NCBI RefSeq assembly: GCF_000337795.1
Contig: NZ_AOLP01000006.1
Location: 1 to 64,000, forward strand
Reading direction: 5' to 3'
Source: Haloferax denitrificans ATCC 35960
Lineage (GTDB): Archaea; Halobacteriota; Halobacteria; Halobacteriales; Haloferacaceae
DNA length: 64,000 nt
Below, piece after piece: positions 37,993-54,543 of this stretch (positions are counted from its first letter, which is position 1; every line of letters begins with the position of its first letter). The notes beneath the pieces were generated by a model. It saw only the letters and a list, made by a program, of their open reading frames with translations. It did not search any database and had not been told where the DNA came from. A program made the translations under genes and the position numbers.

Positions 37993-39282
37993 GTGAATCA
38001 GCGGACTGATTACCAGGGATTGGAGGGCGAAGAGACGCCTTCAGAGAACGAGCCACGAAGTCGTCGCTACAACTGGTCGCGTATGGACCTCGACGAACTT
38101 GTCGACGTCTACTGGCAAGACATTGCGCCGAAACGATATCGCGATGGGTTCGATGAGGACCGCGACGTTCCGACCTACGAGTGGCTCACCGAACACGGAT
38201 ACAGTGGCATCGCGTACGCGCTACGCGAGCATCACGACCTCACACCCAAGCAGTTCTTCGTCGACGTCGTCGGCCTCGAAGACGATGCATCTGAGGAGTG
38301 GGAATGGAACGTTGACCACGACGACACGGTGAACGCGCTCAACGCGTACCTCACATCGATAGAGACTCGTGGTGGACGGGCAGAGAGTACCGTTGAGACC
38401 CATCGGACGAGGTTGGCCAAGTGGGTTCGGACGTACCGGGAGCTGCACGGGACAGATGCGTTGCTCGAACCACTGTCTGAGTTAGACCAGCAACCGCGAG
38501 AGATAGAACGCTGTCTCGCCGTCCTCGACGTCTTCGACGAGGAGCTATCGACCGATCGGTCGAAGCTCGAGTACCTGCACGTCGCAAGAGCGTGGTATGC
38601 GTTCGTGAAACGCCGGAAGTACGCGAAGTACAACCCACTTTCAGAGGCCGGCGAAGAGTTCGGCTGGGAAGCCAGTGAACCAGACCCACAGGCATTGTCC
38701 GCATCGCAAGTGCGTCGAATCTACGGCGAGGTAGATTCGCCCGAGGCGGAGTTACTCGTCGTTGCACTCGCTGGGTGGGGGTTACGACCTTCAGAGGTCG
38801 CCGCGTTGCACGTCGAACAGGTGGCCTTGGATGCAGAGGACCCCCATCTGTCGTTCGGGGATGGAGAGCGCAAGAACGGCCCTGGTGAAGTGACGCTGCT
38901 GTATGGCGTGGATGTCGTCGCTGATCGGATTGATTCGCTCTCTGACCGTGAGACGTGGAATGGGTATCTGTTCCCCTCTCGGTCATCGTCGACGGGGCAC
39001 GTGTCAGTTAGCACGATACGTCGTCGGTTCAAGCAGCTCGCTGACACTGCTGGCGTGGTCGTCGATGGGGGTACGCCCACGCCGAAGATGGGGCGTCGGT
39101 TCTGGTACTCGGCGTATCAGGAAGCCGTTGGTGAGGTTCTTGAGGGGCTAGAGGGTGTTGCTGAAGACCAGGGGAGTTCGTCGACGGAGGTTGTGCTACG
39201 GAACTATCTATCGAGGGAGCAAGAGCGGAAGGCTCGGCGGAGGAGGATGTATGAGAAGTTGGAAGCAGCATTCGATCGATAG
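37993..39282 (+). CDS. Site-specific tyrosine recombinase / integrase
   Basis: The 429-residue protein has an N-terminal SAM-like domain (about 110-230: NAYLTSIETRGGRAESTVETH through AWYAFVKRRKYAKYNPL). A catalytic domain follows, with the first arginine in LAGWGLRPSEVAALHVEQV and later motifs (TPTPKMGRRFWYSAYQEAVGEVL, then SSTEVVLRNYLS). The final tyrosine is likely that of NYLS. The gene starts with GTG in the sequence GAGCAGGCGTGAATC, which is copied at 25901. An inverted repeat follows the stop codon. Confidence 0.82.
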   Translation: MNQRTDYQGLEGEETPSENEPRSRRYNWSRMDLDELVDVYWQDIAPKRYRDGFDEDRDVPTYEWLTEHGYSGIAYALREHHDLTPKQFFVDVVGLEDDASEEWEWNVDHDDTVNALNAYLTSIETRGGRAESTVETHRTRLAKWVRTYRELHGTDALLEPLSELDQQPREIERCLAVLDVFDEELSTDRSKLEYLHVARAWYAFVKRRKYAKYNPLSEAGEEFGWEASEPDPQALSASQVRRIYGEVDSPEAELLVVALAGWGLRPSEVAALHVEQVALDAEDPHLSFGDGERKNGPGEVTLLYGVDVVADRIDSLSDRETWNGYLFPSRSSSTGHVSVSTIRRRFKQLADTAGVVVDGGTPTPKMGRRFWYSAYQEAVGEVLEGLEGVAEDQGSSSTEVVLRNYLSREQERKARRRRMYEKLEAAFDR

Positions 39283-39555: not shown

Positions 39556-40395
39556 ATGGCTGGCGACCGAACGCACTCAACAACACCCGCCAAGATTGCA
39601 CGTCAACAGTTGGCACTCTTCGAGTCGATATCGGAAGCCGACTTAGAGCGAATCATCCCGCTCAGTACCATAGAGACCCAACACTACTGCGAGCAAAAAG
39701 CGCAATTCGAACGCGCGGAAACCCCGGATGAGGAATCTCTACCAGAGCGCCTAATTCGTGCACAAGAACAGCACAACGAACTGGTCGAGACGACGGGGAC
39801 GACCAGTGGTGAGTACACACTTGCAGATGCCTGGGACGACATTCAATCGGAGGATGTCTCGTTGCTCTATCCGCCGCTCGCTCATGAGCTCGTGAACATG
39901 ATCTTGATAGGGCGGCCGACCTTTCTACGGTTCGTAGATGGGCGGCCGGTCCAGTTGACACTCGTTCGTGGCGTGACGAAAGGTCGATATCTTGAAGAGC
40001 TCTTCCCGAACGAGCAGTTCCTCTTATGGTGTCATGGAAACCTGTTGGACCGAATCGGATTTGATGTTTCAGGCCTCTCCATTCGCTATCTCAAATATTC
40101 ACAGTCAAAGTTCAACGCCGTCGAGGTGAGCAGGGCACAACTCTTACTCGCAGGCGAAGATGGCGACGACGTCGCTATCAAGCTCAACGAGAAGTCACCA
40201 ATACACCCGAATATCCGCCAACATCCGCTTGCATACGAACGAGACACAGAGAGAGGTAAGCAACTTCGAGCATACGCAGCCTTCTGGCGTGACGGGGGAA
40301 AGCCATCAGGTGCCAATCACTGGAAGCAGTGTGTCAGTTGTCGCTTCAACACCGAGTGTGACCTAGCGCTGGCCCAAGGGGAAGTACGCAGGTAA
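39556..40395 (+). CDS. Cas4/RecB-like Fe-S cluster protein
   Basis: The 279-residue protein has the four-cysteine pattern of Cas4/AddB-type 4Fe-4S nucleases. One cysteine is near the N-terminus (Cys45 in IETQHYCEQKAQFERA, the usual position) and three lie at the C-terminus (CVSCRFNTEC, Cys259, 262, 268). The middle should carry a PD-(D/E)XK nuclease core; DRIGFDVSGLSIRYLKYSQSK is the candidate, but the classical GxxD...(D/E)xK residues are not clear, so activity is uncertain. It is the first gene of an operon with the exonuclease and helicase. No cas1, cas2 or CRISPR array is present. Confidence 0.65.
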   Translation: MAGDRTHSTTPAKIARQQLALFESISEADLERIIPLSTIETQHYCEQKAQFERAETPDEESLPERLIRAQEQHNELVETTGTTSGEYTLADAWDDIQSEDVSLLYPPLAHELVNMILIGRPTFLRFVDGRPVQLTLVRGVTKGRYLEELFPNEQFLLWCHGNLLDRIGFDVSGLSIRYLKYSQSKFNAVEVSRAQLLLAGEDGDDVAIKLNEKSPIHPNIRQHPLAYERDTERGKQLRAYAAFWRDGGKPSGANHWKQCVSCRFNTECDLALAQGEVRR

Positions 40396-40494
40396 CCCAC
40401 TCATGAATAATTCTAACAATAAGCCTCGAATGGGATCAAATCCAGAATTGTACCGAAGAGAAACCATGTGGGACACTCGGACAGGTGTCGATTC

Positions 40495-41934
40495 ATGATT
40501 GGGTTGACGGTCCTCCCAGAGGTGACAATGCAGCGTTGTGGAGGGAACCAGCTCCAAGACATTGTCCGCTACTTCGATTCCGATGTCATCTTCACCCCCA
40601 ACCGAATCCACGAGCCATTCTTGAGCACAGAACTTGACGACTCTGTGCATGTGATGACCCAACCGCTCAACTCCGGTGAGCCAATCGAAATAGCGGGGGA
40701 CAATGATATTCAGCTGGTCTGGGTCTCCACTCCCGCAGACCTTGAGACGCTCATACAGAATACGCAACAGAACCTAAGACAGGAAAGCTCCGAGGTATAT
40801 CTTCTGTCGGATCAACTTGCAGTTTCTGTCAACCTCATCGATTTGGAGGCGCGTCTCGATGGTCTTGCAGCCTACCGGGACACACTCGCCGAGCGCAATG
40901 CCGTTGGTGAATTCACCCACCTCACAATCAAAGCAAACCCAGAGTATCGTGCGGAGTGGCAAGGTGTCGATGTCCAGGGCGTTATGCCTAGTGCCAATGA
41001 ACAGCAGGGAATAAGCTATGCTGGAATTGCACACTTCGAACTCCAGTCTAACGGTATTGTCGGCGGAAAAACTAGAAAACTAGAGAGGTTTGGTTTGCGG
41101 GCCGTTGACCAAGTTGGTGGGACACGCATAGAAACACTCCGCGAGGCCAACATACATTCCCGTCAAGACCTTTCGATGTCATCGGTCAAGAAAATCTCGA
41201 GCCTTTCCGGCTTTGGTCAGACAACAGCTCGAACAGCTATCGAATCGGCACAGGTGATTGAACAAGGGGAGATTCGAAAGGCCTCCGGTGCGAGCCTACC
41301 AGAAGGTAAGCCGATTTTCATAGATATCGAAACCGATGGTCTCAATCCCACGATTATCTGGCTTATCGGCGTCTACCTTCCAGACCAAGACGGCCGATAT
41401 ATGCCGTTCATTGAGACCGATCCAGACAAACCCGATGTGGCACTAGAGGCGTTTCTGTCTTGGCTCGCAGAGTTCGGACGTGATCGGCCAATCGTGGCCT
41501 ATAACGGCTGGAATTTTGACTTCCCCGTGATCAACGAACATATCGCCGACCATTGCCCCAGATATCTCGAACTCTGGGAAAGCTCGTATCGTTTCGATCT
41601 CTACGACTGGGCAGTCAAAAAGAATAACGCGACCCTCCCTGGGTTAACAAACAAATTGGAAGATGTCGCGGAGGCACTCGGTTGGGAGCCATTCGATACC
41701 GGTCTAACCGGTGCTGAAGTCGCCCGGTTGTTCCAGCGTTATGCTGCGAATCCCTGCCCAGCTACCGAGCTAGATTGGGAGCGTCACAAACGATATTGCG
41801 AAGACGACGTCCGGGCGTTAGCACACATCTATAATCAAATAAAGGCATCCACCAACCGAATGACGTCGAGCGGGGGTCGATCCCGTTCGTCAAATAAAAA
41901 CTCCACGTCACAAGGAACTCTTAGTGATTTCTAA
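40495..41934 (+). CDS. DEDD exonuclease with helix-hairpin-helix region (MrfB/YprB-like)
   Basis: The C-terminal half is an RNase-H-like 3'-5' exonuclease of the YprB/MrfB type: Asp277 and Glu279 (FIDIETDGLNP), Asp342 (NGWNFDFPV), and Tyr434/Asp438 (RYCEDDV). The middle has two helix-hairpin-helix-like repeats (DQVGGTRIETLREANIHSRQDL; ISSLSGFGQTTARTAIESA) that bind DNA. The N-terminal 200 residues resemble a RecB-like domain of the same family without clear catalytic residues. It is followed after three bases by the helicase gene. In Bacillus, MrfB works with MrfA in repair of mitomycin damage. Confidence 0.75.
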   Translation: MIGLTVLPEVTMQRCGGNQLQDIVRYFDSDVIFTPNRIHEPFLSTELDDSVHVMTQPLNSGEPIEIAGDNDIQLVWVSTPADLETLIQNTQQNLRQESSEVYLLSDQLAVSVNLIDLEARLDGLAAYRDTLAERNAVGEFTHLTIKANPEYRAEWQGVDVQGVMPSANEQQGISYAGIAHFELQSNGIVGGKTRKLERFGLRAVDQVGGTRIETLREANIHSRQDLSMSSVKKISSLSGFGQTTARTAIESAQVIEQGEIRKASGASLPEGKPIFIDIETDGLNPTIIWLIGVYLPDQDGRYMPFIETDPDKPDVALEAFLSWLAEFGRDRPIVAYNGWNFDFPVINEHIADHCPRYLELWESSYRFDLYDWAVKKNNATLPGLTNKLEDVAEALGWEPFDTGLTGAEVARLFQRYAANPCPATELDWERHKRYCEDDVRALAHIYNQIKASTNRMTSSGGRSRSSNKNSTSQGTLSDF

Positions 41935-41937
41935 ACC

Positions 41938-44376
41938 ATGAGCCAGAATACAACTCCATCACTCGACGCAGTCCTGAACGCCAACACCCTTGAAGAGACC
42001 TTCCCCGACTACGAAGGACAACTTATAGACACAATCGCAGACCCTCCTCGAAAGGCAAACACGGTTCCAGCAACGGATGTGTTACCGGATGAGCTTGGTG
42101 ACCTACTCGAAAACGATCTCTACAGCCATCAAGCCGAGGCGATTCGCGAGTTACAGTCAGGCAATAATGTAACTGTCGCTACGTCCACCTCTTCTGGTAA
42201 AACTTGGGTCTACACGCTCTATTTTTGTCTTCAGAAAATGCAGAATCCGGATGCTCGCGCCCTGTTCCTGTATCCCACGAAAGCATTGAGTGTTAATCAA
42301 GAACGGAAAGTCAATGATCTCTTCGATCAGCTTGGTATTGACGCTGTTGCTGAAACCTATGATGGTGATACGAAAGATGACCGGAAAAAACTGATCAGAG
42401 ACCGAGTTGACGTTGTTATCTCAAACTTTGCAGGCATCAACCAGTATCTTGACTCACACATGAAATGGCGTGATATCTTCAAAAACTGTGAACTCATGGC
42501 CATCGACGAATGCCACACCTATACCGGAGTTCATGGGATGCACGTCGCGTGGGTCATTCGCCGGCTCCGCCGTCTTCTTGACCACTACGGCTCAGACCCA
42601 CAGTTGGTCTGTTCAACTGCCACAATCGGAAACCCCAGAGAACATTCGGAGCACCTGACCGGAGCCGAATTCGAAATCATCGACGAGGACGGTAGTCCCC
42701 ACGGCCGACGGGAGGTTGGCTTCTGGCAACCACCACTCCAAGAAACGGGGGATTTGGTCGAGGAGTTGGAAGAAGACGAGATTCTTCCCTCTATGCGACG
42801 GAATTCCGATGAGGAAGCCGCAGGTGCTCTAGTCCACCTAGCGAAGAACGATGTCCAAACACTGATGTTCACTGATTCGCGCCAGGGGACCGAGATTGGC
42901 GTCAAACGCGCTATCGAAGCCGCCCGAAGTCATCCTGATGGAAAATATATCGACGTGGAGCCATACCACGCTGGGCTCAGTAAGCGGAAGCGACGTGCCG
43001 TAGAGAACCAGCTAAATGCTGGCCAAGTCGACGGAGTGATATCGACCAGTGCACTAGAGCTTGGAATCGATATAGGTTCAATGGATGCGACGGTGCTCGC
43101 TGGGTATCCCGGTACCCGGCAATCCTTTTGGCAGCGAATCGGCCGTGCAGGTCGGGGAACCACCGATTCGCTATCCGTGTTTGTTCCCCAATCGGACGCC
43201 ATCGACCAGTATATTTTGAACAACCCCGACTACGTGCTTGAAGAAAACGTAGAAGATGCCGTCATCGACCTTTCAAATAACCCAGTGTACGCCAAGCACA
43301 TTCTCTGTGCTGCATCTGAACGGCCACTTACTGAAGCTGACACCAAGTGGTTCGGACCAAGGGATCGGCTTTCACGAGCGATCAACATGTGGCAGGCAGC
43401 CGGGCAGCTAGTCGGAGACTTGGATCGGGGCGCACAGTACAACGGAACCGCTCGACCGCAGAGCGGGATTTCGATGTATGCGACCACCGATGAACAGTAC
43501 GACGTGAGACAGGTAGATGGAGAGATCGACATGGAGCCCCTTGACAAAGAACGTGTGTACCGCGAGTATCACCCCGGCGCATTGGTGCTTTATGACGGGG
43601 ACCAGTACGAAGTCCAAGAAGTCGTTGAGGACCGAATCAACCCGTACGTCACCGTTGAGCGGTCAAATTCTGCGAACTATACCCAGGCAATCCACAACAA
43701 ACGGATCACTGACTTGGATGTTGAGAGGTCGTATGACCTAGGTGGCGGCTATCAACTCTGTGCTGGGATGGGGACGGTGCATATCAATTACAGCGCCTAC
43801 AACGTCATCGACATGTACACCGGGGAAATCGTCGAACCGATGATTCCCATTGATCTTGCACCAATTTCGCTCCGTACACAGGTCATGTGGATTGCGTTCC
43901 CTCGGGAGATTGTTAGTAGGGTATTGAATGAGATCCCGCGGAGCTCATACCTCCAACCGGAGGATAGCGGTGAATTCGCATCGATGGGTGAAGAAGAGTA
44001 TACCTTGGCTGGTGGCCTCCATGGGGGAGAACATGGTATGATCAAGATGGCACCGCTGGAACTCCGATTAGACAACAGCGATATGGGTGGGTTGTCAACA
44101 CTCCACCACAACGAGGTGGGCTCTCCGGTGTGGTTCATTCACGATGCGGTTGAGGGCGGCGTAGGTTTCGCTCACAGCGTCTACGAAAACTTCCAGTCGG
44201 TTGCACAGCGTACTGTCGAGCGCATTGATAACTGCGACTGCGAGCGCGACGTTGGTTGTCCTGCATGCTTGATGAGCAGCCAATGTGGGAATCAAAACGA
44301 ACCGCTCCATCGGCCGGCAGCGATAAGCTTCCTTCGTGCCGCTCTAAATAAAGTTGAAGACGCAACTACCGGTTGA
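41938..44376 (+). CDS. Hrq1/MrfA-type DEAD/H helicase with DUF1998 zinc domain
   Basis: The 812-residue protein has the superfamily-2 motifs: Walker A TSSGKT (residues 84-89), Ia LYPTKAL, DECH box (190-193), motif III STATIGN, motif IV-V HAGLSKRKRR and STSALELGIDIG, and motif VI QRIGRAGR (399-406). The C-terminus carries the four-cysteine DUF1998 cluster (Cys766, 768, 774, 777, 783 region; CDCERDVGCPACLMSSQCGN), diagnostic for the YprA/MrfA/Hrq1 group. It would unwind DNA for the DEDD exonuclease encoded just upstream. The 3' end converges on the Argonaute gene. Confidence 0.85.
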   Translation: MSQNTTPSLDAVLNANTLEETFPDYEGQLIDTIADPPRKANTVPATDVLPDELGDLLENDLYSHQAEAIRELQSGNNVTVATSTSSGKTWVYTLYFCLQKMQNPDARALFLYPTKALSVNQERKVNDLFDQLGIDAVAETYDGDTKDDRKKLIRDRVDVVISNFAGINQYLDSHMKWRDIFKNCELMAIDECHTYTGVHGMHVAWVIRRLRRLLDHYGSDPQLVCSTATIGNPREHSEHLTGAEFEIIDEDGSPHGRREVGFWQPPLQETGDLVEELEEDEILPSMRRNSDEEAAGALVHLAKNDVQTLMFTDSRQGTEIGVKRAIEAARSHPDGKYIDVEPYHAGLSKRKRRAVENQLNAGQVDGVISTSALELGIDIGSMDATVLAGYPGTRQSFWQRIGRAGRGTTDSLSVFVPQSDAIDQYILNNPDYVLEENVEDAVIDLSNNPVYAKHILCAASERPLTEADTKWFGPRDRLSRAINMWQAAGQLVGDLDRGAQYNGTARPQSGISMYATTDEQYDVRQVDGEIDMEPLDKERVYREYHPGALVLYDGDQYEVQEVVEDRINPYVTVERSNSANYTQAIHNKRITDLDVERSYDLGGGYQLCAGMGTVHINYSAYNVIDMYTGEIVEPMIPIDLAPISLRTQVMWIAFPREIVSRVLNEIPRSSYLQPEDSGEFASMGEEEYTLAGGLHGGEHGMIKMAPLELRLDNSDMGGLSTLHHNEVGSPVWFIHDAVEGGVGFAHSVYENFQSVAQRTVERIDNCDCERDVGCPACLMSSQCGNQNEPLHRPAAISFLRAALNKVEDATTG

Positions 44377-44397
44377 ATCACCGACTACTGAAGATAA

Positions 44398-44680
44398 TAC
44401 CCTTGTTGAAACCCTCAATCGGTGATGGGTTGCTGGCACTGTATTAACTGGTCTGTGTTCAAAGGAAATCGTTTCATGGGCGCTACACTGAATAGACGAA
44501 TGCACAGCTTAGCCCCACTATTCTGGTCATCTACGAGTTTTCGTACTCGAAAATAGTAACCGGACCTCAAGGGTCACAAAAACAGACTTGATCTTGAGCT
44601 TACTCTTTCAAATTCACCCATTAATTTCGAGACAGACGTCTCAACGAATCACCAGACGTGAAGAGGATTTCAACAAAGCC
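44398..44680. repeat. Degenerate MITE between helicase and Argonaute genes
   Basis: The gap between the two convergent stop codons is almost filled by an element with ends CTTGTTGAAACC and GGATTTCAACAAAGCC. Its left part matches 3951 and 24052; its right part (ATCACCAGACGTGAAGAGG) matches MITE copy 2. Confidence 0.6.
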
Positions 44681-44686
44681 AGCCAA

Positions 44687-46936
44687 TTAGATGTAGGCAG
44701 GACCTTTTATCACCTTTCCAGGAGAAACATATTCCTTGCGCACATATTCTGCAGCTTTGTCTGCATATTCAATTGGAATCGGAAGTCGAGGACTCTTGGC
44801 TGGGCTACCGACGTGAACTTCTGATAGCCAGTAAGCCTGCCTTGCCAGGGTCTCGATATCAGTCGGTCCCGAGTGTCGAACGAGTTTGAAAGTCTGCGGT
44901 GTCCCAACAGGGTTGTCATCTCTAATCTCAGGTTTCCCAAATCCGTGAATAACTGCCTCGTCGCGGTCGGCGTCGACAAAGGCCATACCCTTATATGCGA
45001 TTTTGAAGCGGGTTCCGTTGTAGTCTGCGATTCGGGGTTGCCCTCGCTTTCGAACTCCTACGATGTCGATCTCGGCATCAAGCTCGGAGAGTCCCTCTCG
45101 TACAGCGTCAATATCTTCATGAACCTTCCCGTCGCGCATGATACACACACGGTTAATCTCTCTTTCTTGACCCTCCGCAAAGTCAACGACAAGGTCACGA
45201 ACAAATTGTTCAACGTGGCGAGCAGCAAACTTTTCACCTCCCTGTTGGGTTGTCGATTCTGCTGCGAAGGTTGTTCCATCCGCAAGTACAACACTAGCGC
45301 TAGCTCCGGAATGTTGTCCACTCTCTGAGTCGCGCGTCACGTCAAGACCCATGAAAGCATCAGTTTCACCGGGTAGAGAGTCAACTTGCCAAGGAGTACC
45401 ACCTGCTTTCGCAACGATTGCGCTCAAGATGTTCAGGAATTTATCATTATTTGGTGTAGCTCGTTGCTTGATAAGTTCCTGAGCGCTAGACTTCTGGAGC
45501 ATCTGAGTGGGGATACCTTTCCGCATCAATGTCCGTTTTAGCTCATGATGGGGGTCATCGATACCGAAATCATCTGCAGCCCCCTTATTAGGGACGACTG
45601 CAACAACAGCATCAGTCTCACTACGGATCTCATGCGCAACTGGCGTGTAATTCGAAATATCCCCGAGACCGTAATGGTAGCCAGTCACCCCGGCGGGCGC
45701 TCCGATATTATTGAGGCCTTTTACCAGAAGAGGTGTTAGTTTCTGTAGCGTCTCTTCCCACTGAGAAGGCATTAAGAGACCGACGCGGTACCTCCCTGGG
45801 GAAGCATACACCCCGTACTCGCGGAGTCCGCCGCTCGGGGTATTGCTCTGTTGGTCGTCAGAGAAGACAAGCCGTGTGTTCTGTTCTCGGACGTTAATTC
45901 GTTTGTATGGGTGATTTGTCGGGCCGGGTTCAAATTCTAAATCGATGACTGGCAGCCTCGAAAGTGACTCGAAGAATGATTTTGAATAATCATACTTCTC
46001 ATCAGGCATCATCGCACGCCGTGAGATAAACTGGGAAAAGAAGTCGTAATCCTGCCTCTGCACTTGTTCCGGTCGTGGAGATAATCGGAGGAAGTGAGGT
46101 AGTTGGTTACCAACCATATTTCCATATTTGACCTTGACAAGCCGTGGATTTTCCTCAATGAGACGTTGCCTCCAGTCTTCGTCAGCAGTTCCCTCATGAA
46201 GTTCGGCGATGGATGAACCGACATCGCGGATATAATCAGTATAGTTGAACTCACTCCAGCCTTTTAGCCATCCTTGTCCTTCCTTAGCATAGCGGTCTGT
46301 ATCATGGGCGACCTTCATGTTCGGCAACTGGCTACCGGGGGAGTACAAATTGTCAAGTGTCGATTTGGACTTAATAGAGTACCCTGATTCGACATGAGCT
46401 AATACAGTACCATCACTAGCTATCTGTACCTTGACCTCGTGTTTGGGATGTGCAGCAAATCCATCGGTACCGGTGGAGAACGCAGGGTCGTTTCTGACGA
46501 TATCATTGATGAATTTGTATGCATAGGTGTCATCTGGGACCGCTCGCCGGAGACAAGATTGAACAAAAGCACGGAGGTGCTCTCGGTCACGTTTCTTTTT
46601 CGGATCTAACTGGACAGTCTCCGTTTTCACCGGTGTTACTCGTTTCCCCCAGACGTTCACCGGTTTCGAGAGCCCAGTGACGGAGATTACACTCAGCGGG
46701 CCAGCTGATGCAACAGGTGTTCCGTGAGTGCGGTCTAGGTAGTACGCCGCAGATGAGGTGAATGATTGACTGTCCCAGTGGTTTTCGACACCACCATCGA
46801 CACGCAGTTCGTACCGATTCACCTTGACATCGGTAAGTCGCCGGTTCCCACGACCATGCAGTACGTACGTGCCCGGGTTGATGTCAGCCTGACGTTCAGG
46901 TGTTCTAGAATTCGTTTGAGGGGACCGATTTGTCAT
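44687..46936 (-). CDS. Prokaryotic Argonaute, long type with catalytic core
   Basis: The 749-residue protein has the length and C-terminal layout of long pAgos. The MID region (about 400-510) shows GIPTQML...NILSAIVAKAGGTPW, the pattern that holds the 5' end of the guide. The PIWI domain has Asp532 (MGLDVTRD), Glu568 (QQGGEKF), Asp602 (IMRDGKV) and a terminal motif PIPIEYADKAAEYV whose Glu723 or Asp726 is the likely fourth ligand. The spacing (+36, +70) agrees with active pAgos, so guided DNA or RNA cleavage is expected. The N and PAZ parts are less conserved; a PAZ cannot be assigned by eye. It is transcribed toward the Cas4/MrfB/MrfA operon. Confidence 0.88.
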   Translation of the reverse strand: MTNRSPQTNSRTPERQADINPGTYVLHGRGNRRLTDVKVNRYELRVDGGVENHWDSQSFTSSAAYYLDRTHGTPVASAGPLSVISVTGLSKPVNVWGKRVTPVKTETVQLDPKKKRDREHLRAFVQSCLRRAVPDDTYAYKFINDIVRNDPAFSTGTDGFAAHPKHEVKVQIASDGTVLAHVESGYSIKSKSTLDNLYSPGSQLPNMKVAHDTDRYAKEGQGWLKGWSEFNYTDYIRDVGSSIAELHEGTADEDWRQRLIEENPRLVKVKYGNMVGNQLPHFLRLSPRPEQVQRQDYDFFSQFISRRAMMPDEKYDYSKSFFESLSRLPVIDLEFEPGPTNHPYKRINVREQNTRLVFSDDQQSNTPSGGLREYGVYASPGRYRVGLLMPSQWEETLQKLTPLLVKGLNNIGAPAGVTGYHYGLGDISNYTPVAHEIRSETDAVVAVVPNKGAADDFGIDDPHHELKRTLMRKGIPTQMLQKSSAQELIKQRATPNNDKFLNILSAIVAKAGGTPWQVDSLPGETDAFMGLDVTRDSESGQHSGASASVVLADGTTFAAESTTQQGGEKFAARHVEQFVRDLVVDFAEGQEREINRVCIMRDGKVHEDIDAVREGLSELDAEIDIVGVRKRGQPRIADYNGTRFKIAYKGMAFVDADRDEAVIHGFGKPEIRDDNPVGTPQTFKLVRHSGPTDIETLARQAYWLSEVHVGSPAKSPRLPIPIEYADKAAEYVRKEYVSPGKVIKGPAYI

Positions 46937-47161: not shown

Positions 47162-50100
47162 TCAGGCGAGTTCGTCGTACTTCTCCAGTACCATCTCGAA
47201 GTAGGCATCGTTCATCAAACGAGGATTCTGCACCTGGTGAAAGTCCGCCAGCACGAAGGCGGTCTGCTCCCGGTCGAGACCGTAAGCGTGGAACGCGGCG
47301 GCGTCGAGTTCGGCCTGTACCTCCCGACGCTCGTCCATGTCTGTCGCCGGTTCGATGCCACCCAGTCGCTCTCGCATCTCCTCAAAGGCGTCCCCGTAGC
47401 AGTTGAGCCGGGCCGCGCGAGTCCAGATGTAGTCGAACCAGTCATCGCCTTTGGTCAATTTCGGTACTTGTGACTCCTCGAATTTGTACATGACAACAGT
47501 TGTGTCAATTTTTGTCTTCATCAAGAAGTCGAACGGTATGCTGTTGATGAGACCGAGTGCAACGAACAGTTCTCGGTCATCAAAGACTCGCTCGTAAACG
47601 TCGTGGAGAGTAGGCTTATCGAGGTCTTGGTCACTGGGGTTCAGTGTATAGGGACGAATAGTGTGGAGTTTGTTGTGACACACTATTCCCTTTGGAATAA
47701 CTGAGGCAACCAAGGTTCTCTCATTTGTTGCACTCGTGATGTCACGATACACGATACGGTACTCTGTACAGTCAAGGAGTACGTCTTTTTTAGAGAGGGG
47801 TTCTCCTCTCCGTTCCTCCAAGAGGCCGTTTACGAAGCCGACCTGTGAACCAGTTCCATCAAAAGCATCATAGACGGCTCGTTTTAATTTGGGGAGGCTC
47901 TTCTCACGGACTCGGTATTTTGCGCTCTTTTCAGGCGGGTTTTCAACACTCCAAAACTCTGGGCTATCAATATCGAGATACGTTGAGTCGTGAACGAATT
48001 GATAGATATTCTTCCCCCCAAGAACAGGATAATCTCCCGCACTTTCTGACTCAACAAACCGGTCTGCATCATTCGTTCGGTCGAGTTCACGATAGGGTTT
48101 CGCACTCCAATTCCCGGTTGATTGCTCACTAATTGATGGGTGCTGAATTATGGTTTCAAGTACTTCACTCTCTGATTCTGATTTCAGTAATGGGAACACT
48201 CGCGCCTCCGGAGAGTACTGTTCCAAAACAGCACGGGGCGTCCAGAACGCGTCTTCGTTTAGACTCTGGAGAACATCAACGTCGCCTTCCCGATACAGGC
48301 TTCGAATTTCTTCCGTTTGTCCTCTATTTTCGAACGTTATGACGGTGAACTTGTACCGAGTGTCGATATTATCAAAAATTCCGTGATTCATGAAGTGTGC
48401 CATCACATCGACTCGGGTGTTATCAAGTAAGTGAGTCCGGAGGTCTTTGCCAGATGAACCTGTGAAGATGGTTCCGGGAAGGATTTGAGCGACGTACCCA
48501 TCATCTCGCGCAATCTGGAAGACCCGTTCCAAGAAGAGCGCAGACAGGTCGTTTTCTGTCCCTTCTGTTCGACCAGCAATAGTCGGTCGCTGGAGTTCGT
48601 AGGTTTCAGAATTGTTGAAGTAGTCTGCCTGAATCTTGATGTTCCGTTTGTAGTCTTCCCACCCCTCGGCGATTACCGGGTCGCCGAGCAGTTCCTCTTG
48701 GCGGGCGTCCTTCGCCTCGGGAAGGTACGTTCTGAACTCTCGGTCGTATCGAGAGAAGAAATCGTCTCGGAGCGGTTTGATTCTGTCCCATGGCGGGTTC
48801 CCCACAATTACATCGAACCCACCATCGGCGTACACTTCGGCGAACTCCAGCACCCAGTTGAACGGTTGCATGGCTTCGACCGCTTCAGGCGTGATGTCGT
48901 TGATTCCGGCGGCGACGAAGTCGGCGTGAATGTCGTCTATCAGTTCCTTACGAGCCTTCTCAAGTTTCTTCAGGGCACTCTGCCGGTACTCTTCGGCGGT
49001 CTCGCTGTCAATGGCCTGCTCGTGCTTCTGGATGTCCTCGATGATGTTCCGGTAGCGGTCTCGAACGGTGTCTTCGCTGAAACTCCCGAGCGTGTATTCC
49101 CCGTTGTCGGTCGTCTCGGGGAAGCCGGTGTACCCGATGAGGCTGTTTCCAGCGCGGAGGTTGAAGGCGATGTTCGGGAGTGCGAGGGCGTCGTCGTCGG
49201 CGAGTTCGTCCACGTTCTCTTCGGTCAGTTCGGAAATGACCGAGAGCCACAGACGGAGCTTGCCGATTTCGACCGCCGGGCCGACGATATCGACGCCGTA
49301 GACGTTGTTGAGAACGGTCGTCTTCTTCAGGCGATACTCGTCGGGATACTGCTCGTTGCGGGCGTACAGCGCCTTTCGGATGTTGACGATTTCTTCGAGA
49401 ACCGACGTGAGGAAGTGTCCACTCCCCATCGCAGGGTCAACCACTCGGAAGTCGTCCACCGTGGCGAGAAGGGCGCTTATCGTCCCCCAGCGTCCCGGCA
49501 GTTCGTCGATGAGTTCGTACACCGACTCGAACCCCGTGACGGAGTGTTCGGGCCAGTCGCACTCTTCGACAAGCGTGGTCTGGAAGCGGTCTAACAGCGC
49601 CGGGCGAACGGTCTCTTCAGCGCAGAAGCGGGTGATCTCGCTCGGGGTGTAGTACGCTCCGAGTTCCTTGTTGGTGTCGGCGTTGTCGCTGGTGATGTAG
49701 TTGATCGTTTTCTCGAAGACGTTACCGAGGATACTGGGGTCGAGGTCAGTGGGTGCGCCGCCTGCGGAGAAACTGTACCCTTCCAGCAGGTCGATGATGG
49801 AGTAGAGAACGGAGTTCCGAACGTCGAAGTCGTCTTCGTCGAAGTCGTCGCCGTTGATGGTTGGTCGGAAGAGACCGCCGTTGAGGTACGGGATGCCATT
49901 GAACAGGTCGATGTTCTGGACGGTCGATGGCCGGTCTTCCGGCTTGTTGTTCATCACGTCGTAGAAGAGTAGTTGCAGGAACTCGTCGTAGAAGGTGCCC
50001 CCGTAAATGCCGTTCTCATAGGTATCTTTCAGCGTCCGAAGCAGGTTCGGCTGGACGAGAGATTTGTCTTCGAGGAACTTGATGAAGATGAGCCGGTTCA

Positions 50101-50992
50101 TCAGTTCGACCGCGAACAGGCGGGTGTCCTCTTCGGTCGCCTCCTCGGGGGGCATGACGCCGTCGCCGATGAGCGAGCGGGAAGTCGTCTCGTCGTCGCT
50201 GACGACGCCGAAGACGAACCGGATGTAGTCGTCGTAAAACTCGTCGGTAATCTCCTCTTGGGTCTGCTTGATGACCTGCCGGGCGTCCCCCGCGATGGAC
50301 GTGAAGTTCTCGAACTCGAAGGTGCGGATGAGCCGGACGACTCGCTCCCGGTCGGCGTCGAAGAGGGCTTCTGTCGGTGGTTCCTGCTTGCCGGTCTGGT
50401 TCTCGAAGAGGGCGACGAAAACCGGCTGTAAATCCACTTCCTCGATAATGTTGTGGGTATAGGTGTCCGGGTCGTAGCGGACGAAGTACCACCGGAGGCC
50501 GTCGGTGGCGAAGCCGAAGTCGGATTCGAATTCCCGTTGGCTCAGCCAGTCTCGGACCTGGCCGACGCCGTGTTCCCGGCTATCGAGGTCTTTGTTGATT
50601 GGTTCGGCCTCGATGAGCAGGCGTGTGGAGTCGATGTCAGCATAGTCCCGAAGGGAAACCGTGTAGTCTGCAACCATCGTCCGCCCGCCCGAGAGTCCAC
50701 CCGCTTCGGTCGAATACTCGTGACCGAGCGCGTCAAGGAGCGGATTGATGACGGCGTCTTGGGTGAAGGACTCGGGTTGGAGACCGTCGCGGGTCATGCT
50801 TCCCCGAAGCAGGTAGGAACCGGCTCCGGCCCGGAGCATCTTCCCGAGCGTCTCGTCTTTGATTTGCTTCCGGAGATTCGCAATCGTCTCGTCAAGTACG
50901 TCAATGAGGTCGGTGACTTCGTCGTCAGAAACCTTCGTCTCGAAGGCCTCTTCGACGAACTCAGTAGGTGAGGGAGATGTTGTGGATGACAT
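47162..50992 (-). CDS. Type IIG-like restriction-modification enzyme (single chain)
   Basis: The 1276-residue protein combines a nuclease-like N-terminal part (Asp109 in VADYTVSL, Glu128/130 and Lys134 in LLIEAEPINK, a PD-(D/E)XK pattern) with a gamma-type N6-adenine methyltransferase. The latter shows YYTPSEITRF (about 447-456), motif I DPAMGSGHF (519-527) and motif IV NPPWD (732-736). The C-terminal 400 residues would be the target-recognition domain. Such Eco57I-like enzymes methylate and cut the same recognition sequence and defend against viruses. It lies downstream of the Argonaute promoter region in the same direction. Confidence 0.85.
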   Translation of the reverse strand: MSSTTSPSPTEFVEEAFETKVSDDEVTDLIDVLDETIANLRKQIKDETLGKMLRAGAGSYLLRGSMTRDGLQPESFTQDAVINPLLDALGHEYSTEAGGLSGGRTMVADYTVSLRDYADIDSTRLLIEAEPINKDLDSREHGVGQVRDWLSQREFESDFGFATDGLRWYFVRYDPDTYTHNIIEEVDLQPVFVALFENQTGKQEPPTEALFDADRERVVRLIRTFEFENFTSIAGDARQVIKQTQEEITDEFYDDYIRFVFGVVSDDETTSRSLIGDGVMPPEEATEEDTRLFAVELMNRLIFIKFLEDKSLVQPNLLRTLKDTYENGIYGGTFYDEFLQLLFYDVMNNKPEDRPSTVQNIDLFNGIPYLNGGLFRPTINGDDFDEDDFDVRNSVLYSIIDLLEGYSFSAGGAPTDLDPSILGNVFEKTINYITSDNADTNKELGAYYTPSEITRFCAEETVRPALLDRFQTTLVEECDWPEHSVTGFESVYELIDELPGRWGTISALLATVDDFRVVDPAMGSGHFLTSVLEEIVNIRKALYARNEQYPDEYRLKKTTVLNNVYGVDIVGPAVEIGKLRLWLSVISELTEENVDELADDDALALPNIAFNLRAGNSLIGYTGFPETTDNGEYTLGSFSEDTVRDRYRNIIEDIQKHEQAIDSETAEEYRQSALKKLEKARKELIDDIHADFVAAGINDITPEAVEAMQPFNWVLEFAEVYADGGFDVIVGNPPWDRIKPLRDDFFSRYDREFRTYLPEAKDARQEELLGDPVIAEGWEDYKRNIKIQADYFNNSETYELQRPTIAGRTEGTENDLSALFLERVFQIARDDGYVAQILPGTIFTGSSGKDLRTHLLDNTRVDVMAHFMNHGIFDNIDTRYKFTVITFENRGQTEEIRSLYREGDVDVLQSLNEDAFWTPRAVLEQYSPEARVFPLLKSESESEVLETIIQHPSISEQSTGNWSAKPYRELDRTNDADRFVESESAGDYPVLGGKNIYQFVHDSTYLDIDSPEFWSVENPPEKSAKYRVREKSLPKLKRAVYDAFDGTGSQVGFVNGLLEERRGEPLSKKDVLLDCTEYRIVYRDITSATNERTLVASVIPKGIVCHNKLHTIRPYTLNPSDQDLDKPTLHDVYERVFDDRELFVALGLINSIPFDFLMKTKIDTTVVMYKFEESQVPKLTKGDDWFDYIWTRAARLNCYGDAFEEMRERLGGIEPATDMDERREVQAELDAAAFHAYGLDREQTAFVLADFHQVQNPRLMNDAYFEMVLEKYDELA

Positions 50993-51898: not shown

Positions 51899-52897
51899 TT
51901 AATTTGATAGATATCGATTTGTTAGTTCGGCAATTAGTTCCATCGATTGACTATTGTCTGGCTCGGGGTACTTCACATCGCCATCTAACAATCCGGCAGC
52001 TCGACAGTCCTCAGCTAAATCCTCCAAACCCCTCGAATACCTAGGTTCAAAATTGTCGAGTTTCTGACTCCTGTCGGCGATTATTTCATCACACCGGGGG
52101 CCACGTGCAGTATTTAATGATATTACGAGTGCAGGCAGTTTCCAAGCGTTGTGGTAGTGAAATTCGTCAAGCTTTGAGATACATCTAATCTGTTCATCAC
52201 CCACGTCTGCTGCGTTCATATTTGAAAGCCCAAACAAAGCCCGTTCCAGCAAGTCCGTGTAGCGTTTGTACTGAGGCATCGCCTTTCGAAGGTCCGAGTC
52301 CGCAGAGAGTTCCAAGTGTATACGCGATATTTTCCTCCCAATATCCTCGTAGCGAACGTTTACTGACGGCTGTTCCTCTTCAAAGCTACTGAGCCCAGTT
52401 TGGAGTGTCGAATCAGATGAATCTAATTCGTTGACAGTCTCGTCGAGAAGCGTGCGGACACTGTGGACGCTCAGATACAATTCCTGGTACTCATCGGGTG
52501 CTTCGGAACTGTAGAAGTCCTCAAGGAACTCATATTTGCTTTTCACTAGCCAGTGAACATACTCGTCGAAGAATTCTGCATACTCCTCCTCTCGTTCTGT
52601 TGGCGAGTACGGTATCGAATCGTCCGCAAACGATTCGTTCACGTCTGGAGTTACTGTTTGTGCAGTGGTCTGGTACGACGGTTTGAACGAGCTCGAAGAA
52701 CGTGCTTTGACGCCGGCGAGGTACCAGCTGTACGTGTACGGGCAGTCAAACTCGTCTGCCGCCATATACACGAGCTTCTCAAGTTTTGTTTTCGTGACGT
52801 AGCGGGGGTCAGCAGAGATATCATCATGCCGTTGGACAGCCAAGGCTAAGCCGGTTAATATGTCATCAACCACACTCACCTCTGGGCCTTCCGGCAT
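51899..52897 (-). CDS. PIN-associated protein with SocA/Panacea-like N-terminal region
   Basis: The 332-residue protein contains KTKLEKLVYMAADEFDCPYTY then SWYLAGVKA, a pattern resembling the SocA/Panacea (DUF4065-like) antitoxin domain, which starts with a helix containing K(L)xKLxYxA. The rest is helical and acidic. It precedes the PIN gene and may neutralise or guide it. The ATG at 52897 is preferred; 52924 is possible. A TATA-like run (TTGTTATATTTC) lies about 20 bases upstream on the minus strand. Confidence 0.5.
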   Translation of the reverse strand: MPEGPEVSVVDDILTGLALAVQRHDDISADPRYVTKTKLEKLVYMAADEFDCPYTYSWYLAGVKARSSSSFKPSYQTTAQTVTPDVNESFADDSIPYSPTEREEEYAEFFDEYVHWLVKSKYEFLEDFYSSEAPDEYQELYLSVHSVRTLLDETVNELDSSDSTLQTGLSSFEEEQPSVNVRYEDIGRKISRIHLELSADSDLRKAMPQYKRYTDLLERALFGLSNMNAADVGDEQIRCISKLDEFHYHNAWKLPALVISLNTARGPRCDEIIADRSQKLDNFEPRYSRGLEDLAEDCRAAGLLDGDVKYPEPDNSQSMELIAELTNRYLSN

Positions 52898-53238
52898 ATT
52901 CGTTAATATATTGTTATATTTCAACGGTATGAATCTTCTGTGACGTCTCGACAGAGGGATAGGGGTTCGACCACCAGCTTCACTGATTTGTTGTCATCCC
53001 TTATTGTAAGACGAAATCGGCCCCACCCACGATCTCACTCTTCACCGCATCGACGAGATGGGCACCATGTAAGGCAGGGTACGTACTTTGCGAAACACGG
53101 AGAGATGGAGGGCGTCAGCGGACGACCGAACCGCGGACTTGCTTGGGAGGGGTGCCTCTGACGACAGCAGTTTCAAATTGGTCAAGTCACTAACAACCAG
53201 TCTATTGTCTGGAAAGTGTCTGGCGGGATTACGACAAT

Positions 53239-53283: not shown

Positions 53284-54543
53284 TCAGGGAATCAATGGTT
53301 GCCCACCAAGCGGCTCGAATCGCGAGTCCCGAAGGATAACCGCCTGGACGATGTCTGAGTCCTCGAGTAGATGGTAGAGGTAGGGAGTGACGCCTCGTCC
53401 CCGTCCCCTCCCGACAACGCGTTCGGTCCGTCCGAGAATATCGAGAAACACGGCCTCGTTAAGCCGGTCATTCATCCGGCGTTGCGAGAGTGTATCCATG
53501 TCCAGTTGGTTTGTGATGTACCTGTAGACCTCGTAAATCTCGTTGCTCGAAAACTCGGCCTCATTCTTGGACTCAACGAGTGCCGCGAGCGCGAGAATTG
53601 GTGCTTTTGCCTGGGTTGGTTGGTCTTTGAGTAAGGCAGCAAAGCGGTCCATGTCAGCCTTATCGCGAGCGTCCTTGACGTGTTGATCAGTTACTTTCTC
53701 AGCATCGCTATTCTTCGCGAGTTCGCCCGCGTTTCGGAGGATGTCTAGTGCCTTCCTGGCGTCGCCATGTTCTTGTGCTGCGTACGCCGCACAGAGCGGG
53801 ATGACGTCGTCAGTAATCACGCCCGGTCTGAAGGCGTCCTTACGATTCTCCATAATAGCACGGAGTTGATTCGCATCGTACGGGGGGAAGATGAATTCAG
53901 TATCTTGGAGACTACTCAACACACGTTCGTCGAGCGATTTTTTGAACGAGATTTTGTTGCTGATCGCGATGATCCCCAGATTGCACGAATCAATCTTCCC
54001 AGCCTCACCAGCACGCGAGAGTTGCATCAGAACTTCGTTCTCTTGCAGTTTGTCGATTTCGTCGAGAATGACGATCACGACATCATAGAGTTCGTCGAGG
54101 ATTTGCCAGAGTCGATGATAGTACGCGTCGGTCGAGAGCCCTGTTTCGGGGATAGAGATACCAGTCCTCTCGGGGTTATTGAGTTCTCGAGCAAGGTTGA
54201 CGACGACACGGGTTTCGGTAGACGATTGTGTACAGTCAACGTATGCTCGACCCATATCCACGCCTTGATTTCCGGCATAGCGTTGGGCACTCCGTGTGAC
54301 GTGTTTCGTGACGAGAGACTTTCCCGTTCCAGTTTTCCCGTAGATAAGCGTGTTCCGCGGCGAGCCACCGCTGATAGCTGGATGAAGGGAAGACACGATA
54401 TTCTCAATCTCCTCGTCCCGTCCGATGATGCGGTCCTCGTTAGGGATGTGGTCGATCTCGAGCAGTTGTTTTCGCTCGAATATCGGGTCCTCAGCAGCCC
54501 ACATTTCATCAAGTGAGCTTTGTTCCTTGCCGCCTGAATCCAT
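53284..54543 (-). CDS. orc1/cdc6: Orc1/Cdc6-family replication initiator
   Basis: The 419-residue protein is a complete Orc1/Cdc6. It has Walker A GKTGTGKSL, Walker B VIVILDEIDKL, sensor-1 LGIIAISNKIS, sensor-2 HGDARKALDILRNAGEL and a C-terminal winged helix (about 320-410) ending in RVVGRGRGRGVTPYLYHLLE that contacts ORB DNA. It recognises the ORB repeats at 54586-55084 and loads MCM helicase. An ORB overlaps its promoter (54586-54608), so it likely controls its own expression. Confidence 0.95.
   Translation of the reverse strand: MDSGGKEQSSLDEMWAAEDPIFERKQLLEIDHIPNEDRIIGRDEEIENIVSSLHPAISGGSPRNTLIYGKTGTGKSLVTKHVTRSAQRYAGNQGVDMGRAYVDCTQSSTETRVVVNLARELNNPERTGISIPETGLSTDAYYHRLWQILDELYDVVIVILDEIDKLQENEVLMQLSRAGEAGKIDSCNLGIIAISNKISFKKSLDERVLSSLQDTEFIFPPYDANQLRAIMENRKDAFRPGVITDDVIPLCAAYAAQEHGDARKALDILRNAGELAKNSDAEKVTDQHVKDARDKADMDRFAALLKDQPTQAKAPILALAALVESKNEAEFSSNEIYEVYRYITNQLDMDTLSQRRMNDRLNEAVFLDILGRTERVVGRGRGRGVTPYLYHLLEDSDIVQAVILRDSRFEPLGGQPLIP

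What the first reader, a model, noticed from the sequence alone, without database searches (positions are those of the whole stretch)
39556..46936. Argonaute converging on a Cas4-like/DEDD exonuclease/Hrq1-type helicase operon
A long pAgo with D-E-D core and MID motif faces an operon of a Cas4-like Fe-S protein, an MrfB/YprB-like exonuclease and an MrfA/Hrq1-like DUF1998 helicase. The gap between stop codons is filled only by a MITE relic. The enzymes could supply ssDNA guides, degrade cut targets or process broken plasmid or viral DNA. MrfAB is known from bacterial repair, and pAgo from defence; the combination in an archaeal island is what may be undescribed. That they work together is inference from adjacency.
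Basis: partly seen in the sequence, partly recalled or inferred. Interest (0 to 1): 0.85.

Follow-up and report, generated by a model that had tools for sequence, protein, structure and literature searches.

The report
Argonaute beside swappable DNA-end-processing enzymes
In this salt-loving archaeon a DNA-cutting Argonaute sits next to a helicase–exonuclease operon, and across its relatives most such Argonautes sit next to some DNA-end-processing machine, a different kind in different lineages, which suggests that the two parts work together against invading DNA.

Summary
A 749-aa pAgo with a complete DEDD tetrad converges on an operon of a small cysteine-rich protein, an RNase_H_2 exonuclease and a YprA/MrfA-type helicase. 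The gap holds a MITE relic.

Corrections: 'Cas4-like' rests only on a cysteine pattern. The exonuclease is DEDDy with a helix-hairpin-helix and a C-terminal PCNA-box-like tail, not a MrfB orthologue.

The proposed co-occurrence test was run. This exact cassette lies beside a pAgo in one lineage (two Haloferax species) of about nine. It otherwise travels alone, often on plasmids. But exonuclease–helicase pairs lie within 10 kb of a pAgo in 9 of 33 cases, against about 2 of 150 type IIG restriction genes, in about six independent arrangements. More broadly, 50 of 64 haloarchaeal pAgo loci (18 of 21 clusters) have an end-processing module nearby: AddAB, Mre11–Rad50–NurA(–HerA), Dna2-like or exonuclease–helicase. 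Only 2 of 40 matched control loci do. Within the window's pAgo clade the slot is filled by different modules.

Best reading: a guided nuclease with an exchangeable end-processing partner. That they work together is inference. Whether this cassette partners this pAgo or is a defence-island neighbour remains open.

The parts
39556..40395 (+).
   Evidence: Conserved in 7 aligned cassettes at 67-97% identity and in 3 further loci. C45 and C259-x2-C262-x5-C268 invariant, spacing as in the AddB/PDDEXK iron-staple tail. No Pfam, PDB-sequence or profile match.
40468..41934 (+). DEDDy 3'-5' exonuclease (RNase_H_2) with N-terminal domain, helix-hairpin-helix and C-terminal PIP-box-like tail QGTLSDF
   Evidence: PF13482 E 7e-29. 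D286, E288, D351, Y443, D447 invariant in 45 homologues. Tail Q-x-x-L-x-[DE]-[FW] in 43 of 45. AF2 pLDDT 89; PolB exonuclease, ExoI and TREX1 folds.
41938..44376 (+). YprA/MrfA-type SF2 helicase with four-cysteine MZB domain
   Evidence: DEAD, Helicase_C, MZB PF09369 E 3e-18, WHD_HRQ1. Walker A ATSTSSGKT, DECH, QRIGRAGR and the cysteine cluster. 3 bp after the exonuclease stop.
44377..44686 (.). Intergenic MITE relic between the two converging stop codons
   Evidence: Inverted termini 44401-44416 / 44663-44678. Termini recur across haloarchaea. Also present in H. elongans at 83% identity.
44687..46936 (-). Long-A Argonaute, 749 aa, catalytic tetrad D532/E568/D602/D726
   Evidence: 98% identical in Haloferax elongans, 47-64% in nine other sampled genomes.
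47162..50992 (-). Type IIG restriction-methyltransferase (Eco57I/MmeI-like), next to the pAgo; neighbour, not claimed as partner
   Evidence: PF07669 E 5e-26, PADLOC REase_MTase_IIG. Used as the control gene family.
37993..39282 (+). Tyrosine recombinase upstream of the cassette (mobility context)
   Evidence: Weak Phage_integrase and XerA matches. 85-89% DNA identity to integrases on five Haloferax plasmids. A 40% homologue lies directly downstream of the pAgo in L065.
53284..54543 (-). Orc1/Cdc6 replication initiator (plasmid-like context)
   Evidence: TIGR02928 426 bits.

Best explanation
The locus is a haloarchaeal DNA-interference unit: a catalytically competent long-A Argonaute (the guided cutter) with a DNA-end-processing helicase-exonuclease as its neighbour and probable partner. 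In the likely mechanism, the YprA-type helicase, with a DEDDy exonuclease that its C-terminal PIP-like tail may hold on PCNA, unwinds and degrades plasmid or viral DNA from ends and nicks. That exposes single strands to the Argonaute and may supply guide fragments. Each Argonaute cut makes a new end for the helicase-exonuclease, so destruction feeds on itself. Related pAgos have AddAB, Mre11-Rad50-NurA(-HerA) or Dna2-like enzymes in the same place. This suggests that the partner's job (processing DNA ends) is kept while the enzyme kind is exchanged. Shown: gene identities, catalytic residues, statistical linkage, module exchange within one pAgo clade. Inferred: physical or functional cooperation, guide supply, PCNA tethering, the role of the cysteine-rich protein, and that this particular cassette is the partner rather than a neighbour.
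For: (1) Exonuclease copies lie within 10 kb of a pAgo in 9 of 33 cases in pAgo-bearing genomes; about 0.2 are expected under random placement, and about 2 of 150 type IIG genes do so (Fisher p 3e-6; collapsed to independent arrangements 5/28 v 1/149, p 4e-4). (2) 50 of 64 pAgo loci (18 of 21 clusters at 70% identity) have an end-processing module within 10 kb, against 2 of 40 matched type IIG neighbourhoods. (3) In the window's own pAgo clade (support 100) the neighbouring module is AddAB in five rows, three different exonuclease-helicase lineages (window/H. elongans, G127, Haloglomus), or HerA-NurA-Rad50-Mre11. AddAB in L063 and L067 and the Haloglomus pair occupy the same converging position as here. 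(4) One exonuclease-helicase subfamily is paired with three unrelated pAgo clades, in five loci as a same-strand pAgo-exo-hel operon. (5) In six genomes the Rad50 beside the pAgo is not the core-type Rad50, a separate copy of which is seen in five of them. (6) All aligned long pAgos but one end-truncated row keep DEDD. (7) The closest solved pAgos are clostridial (CbAgo 6qzk, CpAgo); RecBCD shapes the small-DNA pool of CbAgo-type pAgos in E. coli (PMC10269773).
Against: The exact cassette moves as a unit without the pAgo: 81.5% DNA identity over 4.9 kb with two Natrialbaceae plasmids, ending at the cassette's edges. Only one of about nine cassette lineages is beside a pAgo, and five sampled cassette genomes lack any pAgo. 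The genes converge and are not co-transcribed here. Several exonuclease-helicase pairs sit among ordinary chromosomal genes. Against lone YprA helicases the collapsed contrast is weak (p 0.09). The wider module test used families picked after seeing pAgo neighbourhoods. RecBCD is not required for guide biogenesis by CbAgo (PMC10269773).
Confidence: 0.5

Rival explanations
1. For this particular pair there is no cooperation: the three-gene cassette is an autonomous, plasmid-borne defence or maintenance module that landed beside a pAgo in a defence island (integrase, type IIG enzyme, Orc1).
For: Cassette transferred alone between families. Eight of nine lineages have no pAgo nearby; others sit beside CBASS-like SAVED/ThiF genes (L157), a restriction endonuclease (L156) or a sacsin-like giant protein (L121/L158). 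Integrase and Orc1 in the window.
Against: Type IIG genes, equally typical of such islands, are rarely beside pAgos. Almost every member of the window's pAgo clade has some end-processing module adjacent, so the slot is rarely empty.
Confidence: 0.33
2. The exo-hel pair is a DNA-repair pathway like MrfAB, tethered to PCNA, that heals breaks made by the pAgo in the host's own replicons, so the link is with self-damage or replication completion, not with attack.
For: YprA-YprB/MrfAB pairs are placed in the repair branch of the family (PMC12458937). PIP-like tail in 43 of 45 exonucleases (motif QxxLxxFx as in PMC7776575). Some pairs lie among ordinary chromosomal genes. pAgos can act in replication completion, dependent on RecA/RecBCD (PMC10269773).
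Against: The window cassette is accessory: no second exonuclease of this kind in the host genome, and exonuclease relatives in only 159 of 391 haloarchaea. The same pAgo clade uses unrelated modules, several of which degrade DNA strongly.
Confidence: 0.12
3. Chance adjacency throughout, with apparent enrichment produced by related genomes and post hoc choice of families.
For: Many loci are near-copies (21 of 64 fall in one cluster); module families were chosen after inspection.
Against: Modules switch between closely related pAgos. Matched controls 2 of 40.
Confidence: 0.05

Closest known systems
APAP: haloarchaeal long-A pAgo with AgaP (PLD) protein (PMC11442185)
   Same: Haloarchaeal DEDD pAgo with a co-encoded DNA-processing partner; that paper notes a helicase gene near some loci.
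   Different: No AgaP in the window. The partners described here are end-processing helicase-nucleases, which that paper does not analyse.
DdmDE (pAgo DdmE plus helicase-nuclease DdmD)
   Same: Logic of a guided Argonaute plus a processive helicase-nuclease against plasmids (reviewed in PMC12904381).
   Different: DdmE is catalytically inactive (own knowledge). Here the pAgo has a full tetrad, and helicase and nuclease are separate proteins of other families.
CbAgo/SeAgo with host RecBCD
   Same: Catalytic long-A pAgo whose small-DNA pool is shaped by an end-resecting helicase-nuclease (PMC10269773); CbAgo is the closest solved structure.
   Different: There the machine is the host's own and not linked to the pAgo gene; here such machines are encoded beside the pAgo.
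MrfAB (YprAB) repair pair
   Same: Helicase of the same family with MZB domain plus a DEDD exonuclease encoded next to it.
   Different: Exonuclease is DEDDy, has HhH and a PIP-like tail, lacks TPR; extra cysteine-rich gene; accessory island location.

Membership tests
Long-A prokaryotic Argonaute | MID-PIWI with complete DEDX tetrad | tested here: met
   D532, E568, D602, D726; PADLOC and Pfam matches.
Long-A prokaryotic Argonaute | Guided cleavage of DNA or RNA | not testable with these tools
   Needs biochemistry.
APAP system | AgaP (PLD, HxK...GSxN) gene next to the pAgo | tested here: not met
   No AgaP-family protein within 10 kb in the window or L062; present near 36 of 64 pAgo loci.
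MrfAB | YprA/MrfA helicase with MZB (DUF1998) four-cysteine domain | tested here: met
   PF09369 E 3e-18, WHD_HRQ1.
MrfAB | MrfB: DEDDh exonuclease with C-terminal TPR | tested here: not met
   DEDDy (Y443-x3-D447 invariant); about 30 residues remain after the exonuclease domain; HhH instead. MrfB features from PMC11194089.
Cas4 / RecB-like Fe-S nuclease | Four-cysteine iron cluster | tested here: inconclusive
   C45...C259-x2-C262-x5-C268 invariant; cluster itself not shown.
Cas4 / RecB-like Fe-S nuclease | PD-(D/E)XK catalytic motifs | tested here: not met
   No Pfam match to E 1; no profile match to PDDEXK-containing families beyond the cysteine tail; no motif seen in the alignment. The fold could not be modelled.
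DdmDE | Inactive pAgo plus single-chain helicase-nuclease DdmD | tested here: not met
   pAgo tetrad complete; helicase and exonuclease are separate genes.

The most novel reading that the evidence does not exclude
Haloarchaeal long-A Argonautes form a modular defence system with two obligatory halves: a guided DNA cutter and an exchangeable DNA-end-processing machine (AddAB, Mre11-Rad50-NurA-HerA, Dna2-like, or YprA helicase plus PCNA-tethered DEDDy exonuclease). The machine's general activity, not its family, is selected; it makes guides and destroys cut DNA in a self-amplifying loop.
Probability: 0.4. Interest if true: 0.82.

Novelty: new variant of a known kind. Interest (0 to 1): 0.63.

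Why it matters
How long Argonautes get their guides and clear cut DNA in their native hosts is still largely open. If archaeal pAgos bring their own end-resecting machine, and different lineages have swapped in different machines for the same job, that is natural evidence that end processing is half of the pathway. It also gives a short list of loci where this can be tested by deletion in culturable Haloferax. It would add a defence role to YprA-helicase/exonuclease pairs that are currently filed under repair, and would explain accessory HerA–NurA and second Rad50 copies in haloarchaea.

Tried and rejected
Reading the small gene as a true Cas4: Pfam to E 1, PDB-sequence profile search and profile-profile comparison with PDDEXK families gave only the cysteine tail; AF2 failed on a shallow alignment; no viral relatives. 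Reading the exonuclease as MrfB: active-site class and domains differ. Treating the exact cassette as a pAgo-dependent system: rejected as general, since five sampled genomes carry it without any pAgo. Treating the Rad50/NurA genes beside pAgos as the core repair locus: rejected for six genomes, where the neighbouring copy differs from the core-type Rad50, seen separately in five of them. An 'empty site' comparison with the same-species genome that lacks the pAgo was not done: the last whole-genome search went to the MITE.

Full report
WHAT IS THERE. The window is from a Haloferax-like genome: a close relative of the locus is in Haloferax elongans ATCC BAA-1513, with the cassette and pAgo 97-99% identical. 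On the + strand: a 279-aa cysteine-rich protein (39556-40395), a 488-aa exonuclease (40468-41934) and an 812-aa helicase (41938-44376), with gaps of 72 and 3 bp. On the - strand: a 749-aa pAgo (44687-46936). The stop codons face each other across 310 bp, which carry imperfect inverted termini (44401-44416 and 44663-44678). The stretches around these termini recur in intergenic DNA of many haloarchaea, so the MITE relic is real.

GENE IDENTITIES. The pAgo is long-A with the full tetrad D532/E568/D602/D726; its closest solved relatives are clostridial CbAgo and CpAgo. The helicase is YprA/MrfA-type (DEAD, Helicase_C, MZB, HRQ1 winged helix). The exonuclease has RNase_H_2 and a sub-threshold HhH match. 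D286, E288, D351, Y443 and D447 are invariant in 45 homologues, which makes it DEDDy. A good AF2 model (pLDDT 89) resembles B-family polymerase exonuclease, ExoI and TREX1. Its unstructured C-terminus ends in QGTLSDF, and 43 of 45 homologues end in or near Q-x-x-L-x-[DE]-[FW], which fits the haloarchaeal PIP box QxxLxxFx (PMC7776575). It lacks the TPR and DEDDh site of B. subtilis MrfB (PMC11194089). The small protein is 'Cas4-like' only in its cysteine pattern.

THE EXACT CASSETTE. The three-gene cassette is in about nine lineages: Haloferax (two species), five other genomes of the 391-genome class sample (L117-L121), Halorussus ruber, Natronorubrum bangense and Haloarcula pelagica. Only the Haloferax lineage has a pAgo within reach, and the five other sampled genomes have no pAgo at all. 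At DNA level the cassette alone matches two Natrialbaceae plasmids at 81.5% over 4.9 kb, with the match ending at the cassette. It is therefore a mobile unit that does not need a pAgo.

THE FAMILY-LEVEL ASSOCIATION. In the class sample 53 of 391 genomes have a pAgo and 159 have an exonuclease relative. In pAgo genomes, 9 of 33 exonuclease copies lie within 10 kb of the pAgo. About 0.2 would be expected under random placement, and about 2 of 150 type IIG enzymes do so. The type IIG count is approximate, because some genes appear as two pieces in the list. Collapsed to independent arrangements the contrast is 5/28 v 1/149 (p 4e-4). Against lone YprA helicases, which act as an internal control, it is 9/33 v 1/31 (p 0.013; collapsed p 0.09). 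A further case, Haloglomus halophilum (pAgo 47% identical), repeats the window's converging layout with an unrelated pair (exonuclease 35%, helicase 47%). In five genomes (L100-L103, L181) pAgo, exonuclease and helicase form one same-strand operon. On the helicase tree pAgo adjacency needs at least five or six changes, so it arose or was lost repeatedly.

THE WIDER PATTERN. Neighbourhoods of 64 pAgo loci were scanned with HMMs built from their own gene families, annotated by Pfam. Of the 64, 50 have an end-processing module within 10 kb, covering 18 of 21 clusters at 70% identity. The modules are AddAB (UvrD plus PD-(D/E)XK, fused or split AddB), Mre11–Rad50–NurA with or without HerA, a Dna2-like helicase-nuclease, or exonuclease–helicase. 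The same scan of 40 type IIG neighbourhoods in pAgo-bearing genomes found 2. In six genomes the Rad50 beside the pAgo is not the core-type Rad50, and five of those show a separate core-type copy. HerA and NurA are absent from H. volcanii (PMC7776575). In the tree (quick method; the careful search did not finish) the window's clade contains AddAB, exonuclease–helicase and HerA–NurA–Rad50–Mre11 neighbours, so modules have been exchanged beside one pAgo type. Caveats: families were chosen after inspection, many loci are near-copies, and only one control family was used.

MECHANISM. I favour a two-part interference unit: guided nicking or cutting by the pAgo, with end-driven unwinding and degradation by the partner, each making substrate for the other. 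Precedent: RecBCD shapes small-DNA loading of CbAgo, SeAgo and LrAgo in E. coli, although it is not required for guide biogenesis (PMC10269773). DdmDE pairs a pAgo with a helicase-nuclease (PMC12904381). Cooperation, guide supply and PCNA tethering are inferences. For this specific pair, island co-residence is a serious rival (0.33).

WHAT IS KNOWN. Haloarchaeal pAgo–PLD (APAP) is described, with a remark that helicases occur near some loci (PMC11442185). A general survey saw nucleases and helicases near pAgos but no defined operon compositions outside the CRISPR-linked group (PMC6299218). The YprA-family survey puts YprA–MrfB pairs in the repair branch and does not mention Argonaute (PMC12458937). 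In the open-access papers I could search, I found no description of interchangeable end-processing modules beside pAgos; subscription papers were not searchable. I file it as a new variant of a known kind.

Noticed in passing
window 40468-41934 (residues 482-488) and 43 of 45 homologues: Exonuclease family ends in a PIP-box-like Q-x-x-L-x-[DE]-[FW] after a disordered linker, suggesting PCNA tethering; I found no earlier mention.
   Followed up: partly
L097-L111 and L181, gene directly upstream of pAgo: A DUF2797 gene (PF10977 in the one tested) lies immediately 5' of, or overlaps, the pAgo in one whole clade; a constant companion of unknown function.
   Followed up: no
L083-L095 and relatives, about 0.2-1.9 kb upstream of pAgo: Divergent AAA ATPase (AAA_14/DUF4143-like) next to NgAgo-type and related pAgos.
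   Followed up: no
L104:132-6293, L106: DISARM-type genes (DrmE, a 1288-aa DEAD-box protein, probably a cytosine methyltransferase) lie divergently from a DUF2797-pAgo pair.
   Followed up: partly
window 47162-50992 v L062: The type IIG enzyme is only 86% identical to its H. elongans counterpart while pAgo and cassette are 97-99% identical, as if its specificity were diversifying or recombined.
   Followed up: no
window 51899-52924; L064 about 2.7-3.7 kb after the pAgo start: A 341-aa protein without Pfam family has a homologue (30%) directly beside the pAgo of G127.
   Followed up: no
L078 and L163: pAgo genes interrupted by a stop or split into two frames in otherwise intact loci.
   Followed up: no
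L157:2774-5952: The cassette of Haloarcula pelagica lies near a TIR-SAVED and ThiF (CBASS-like) pair.
   Followed up: partly
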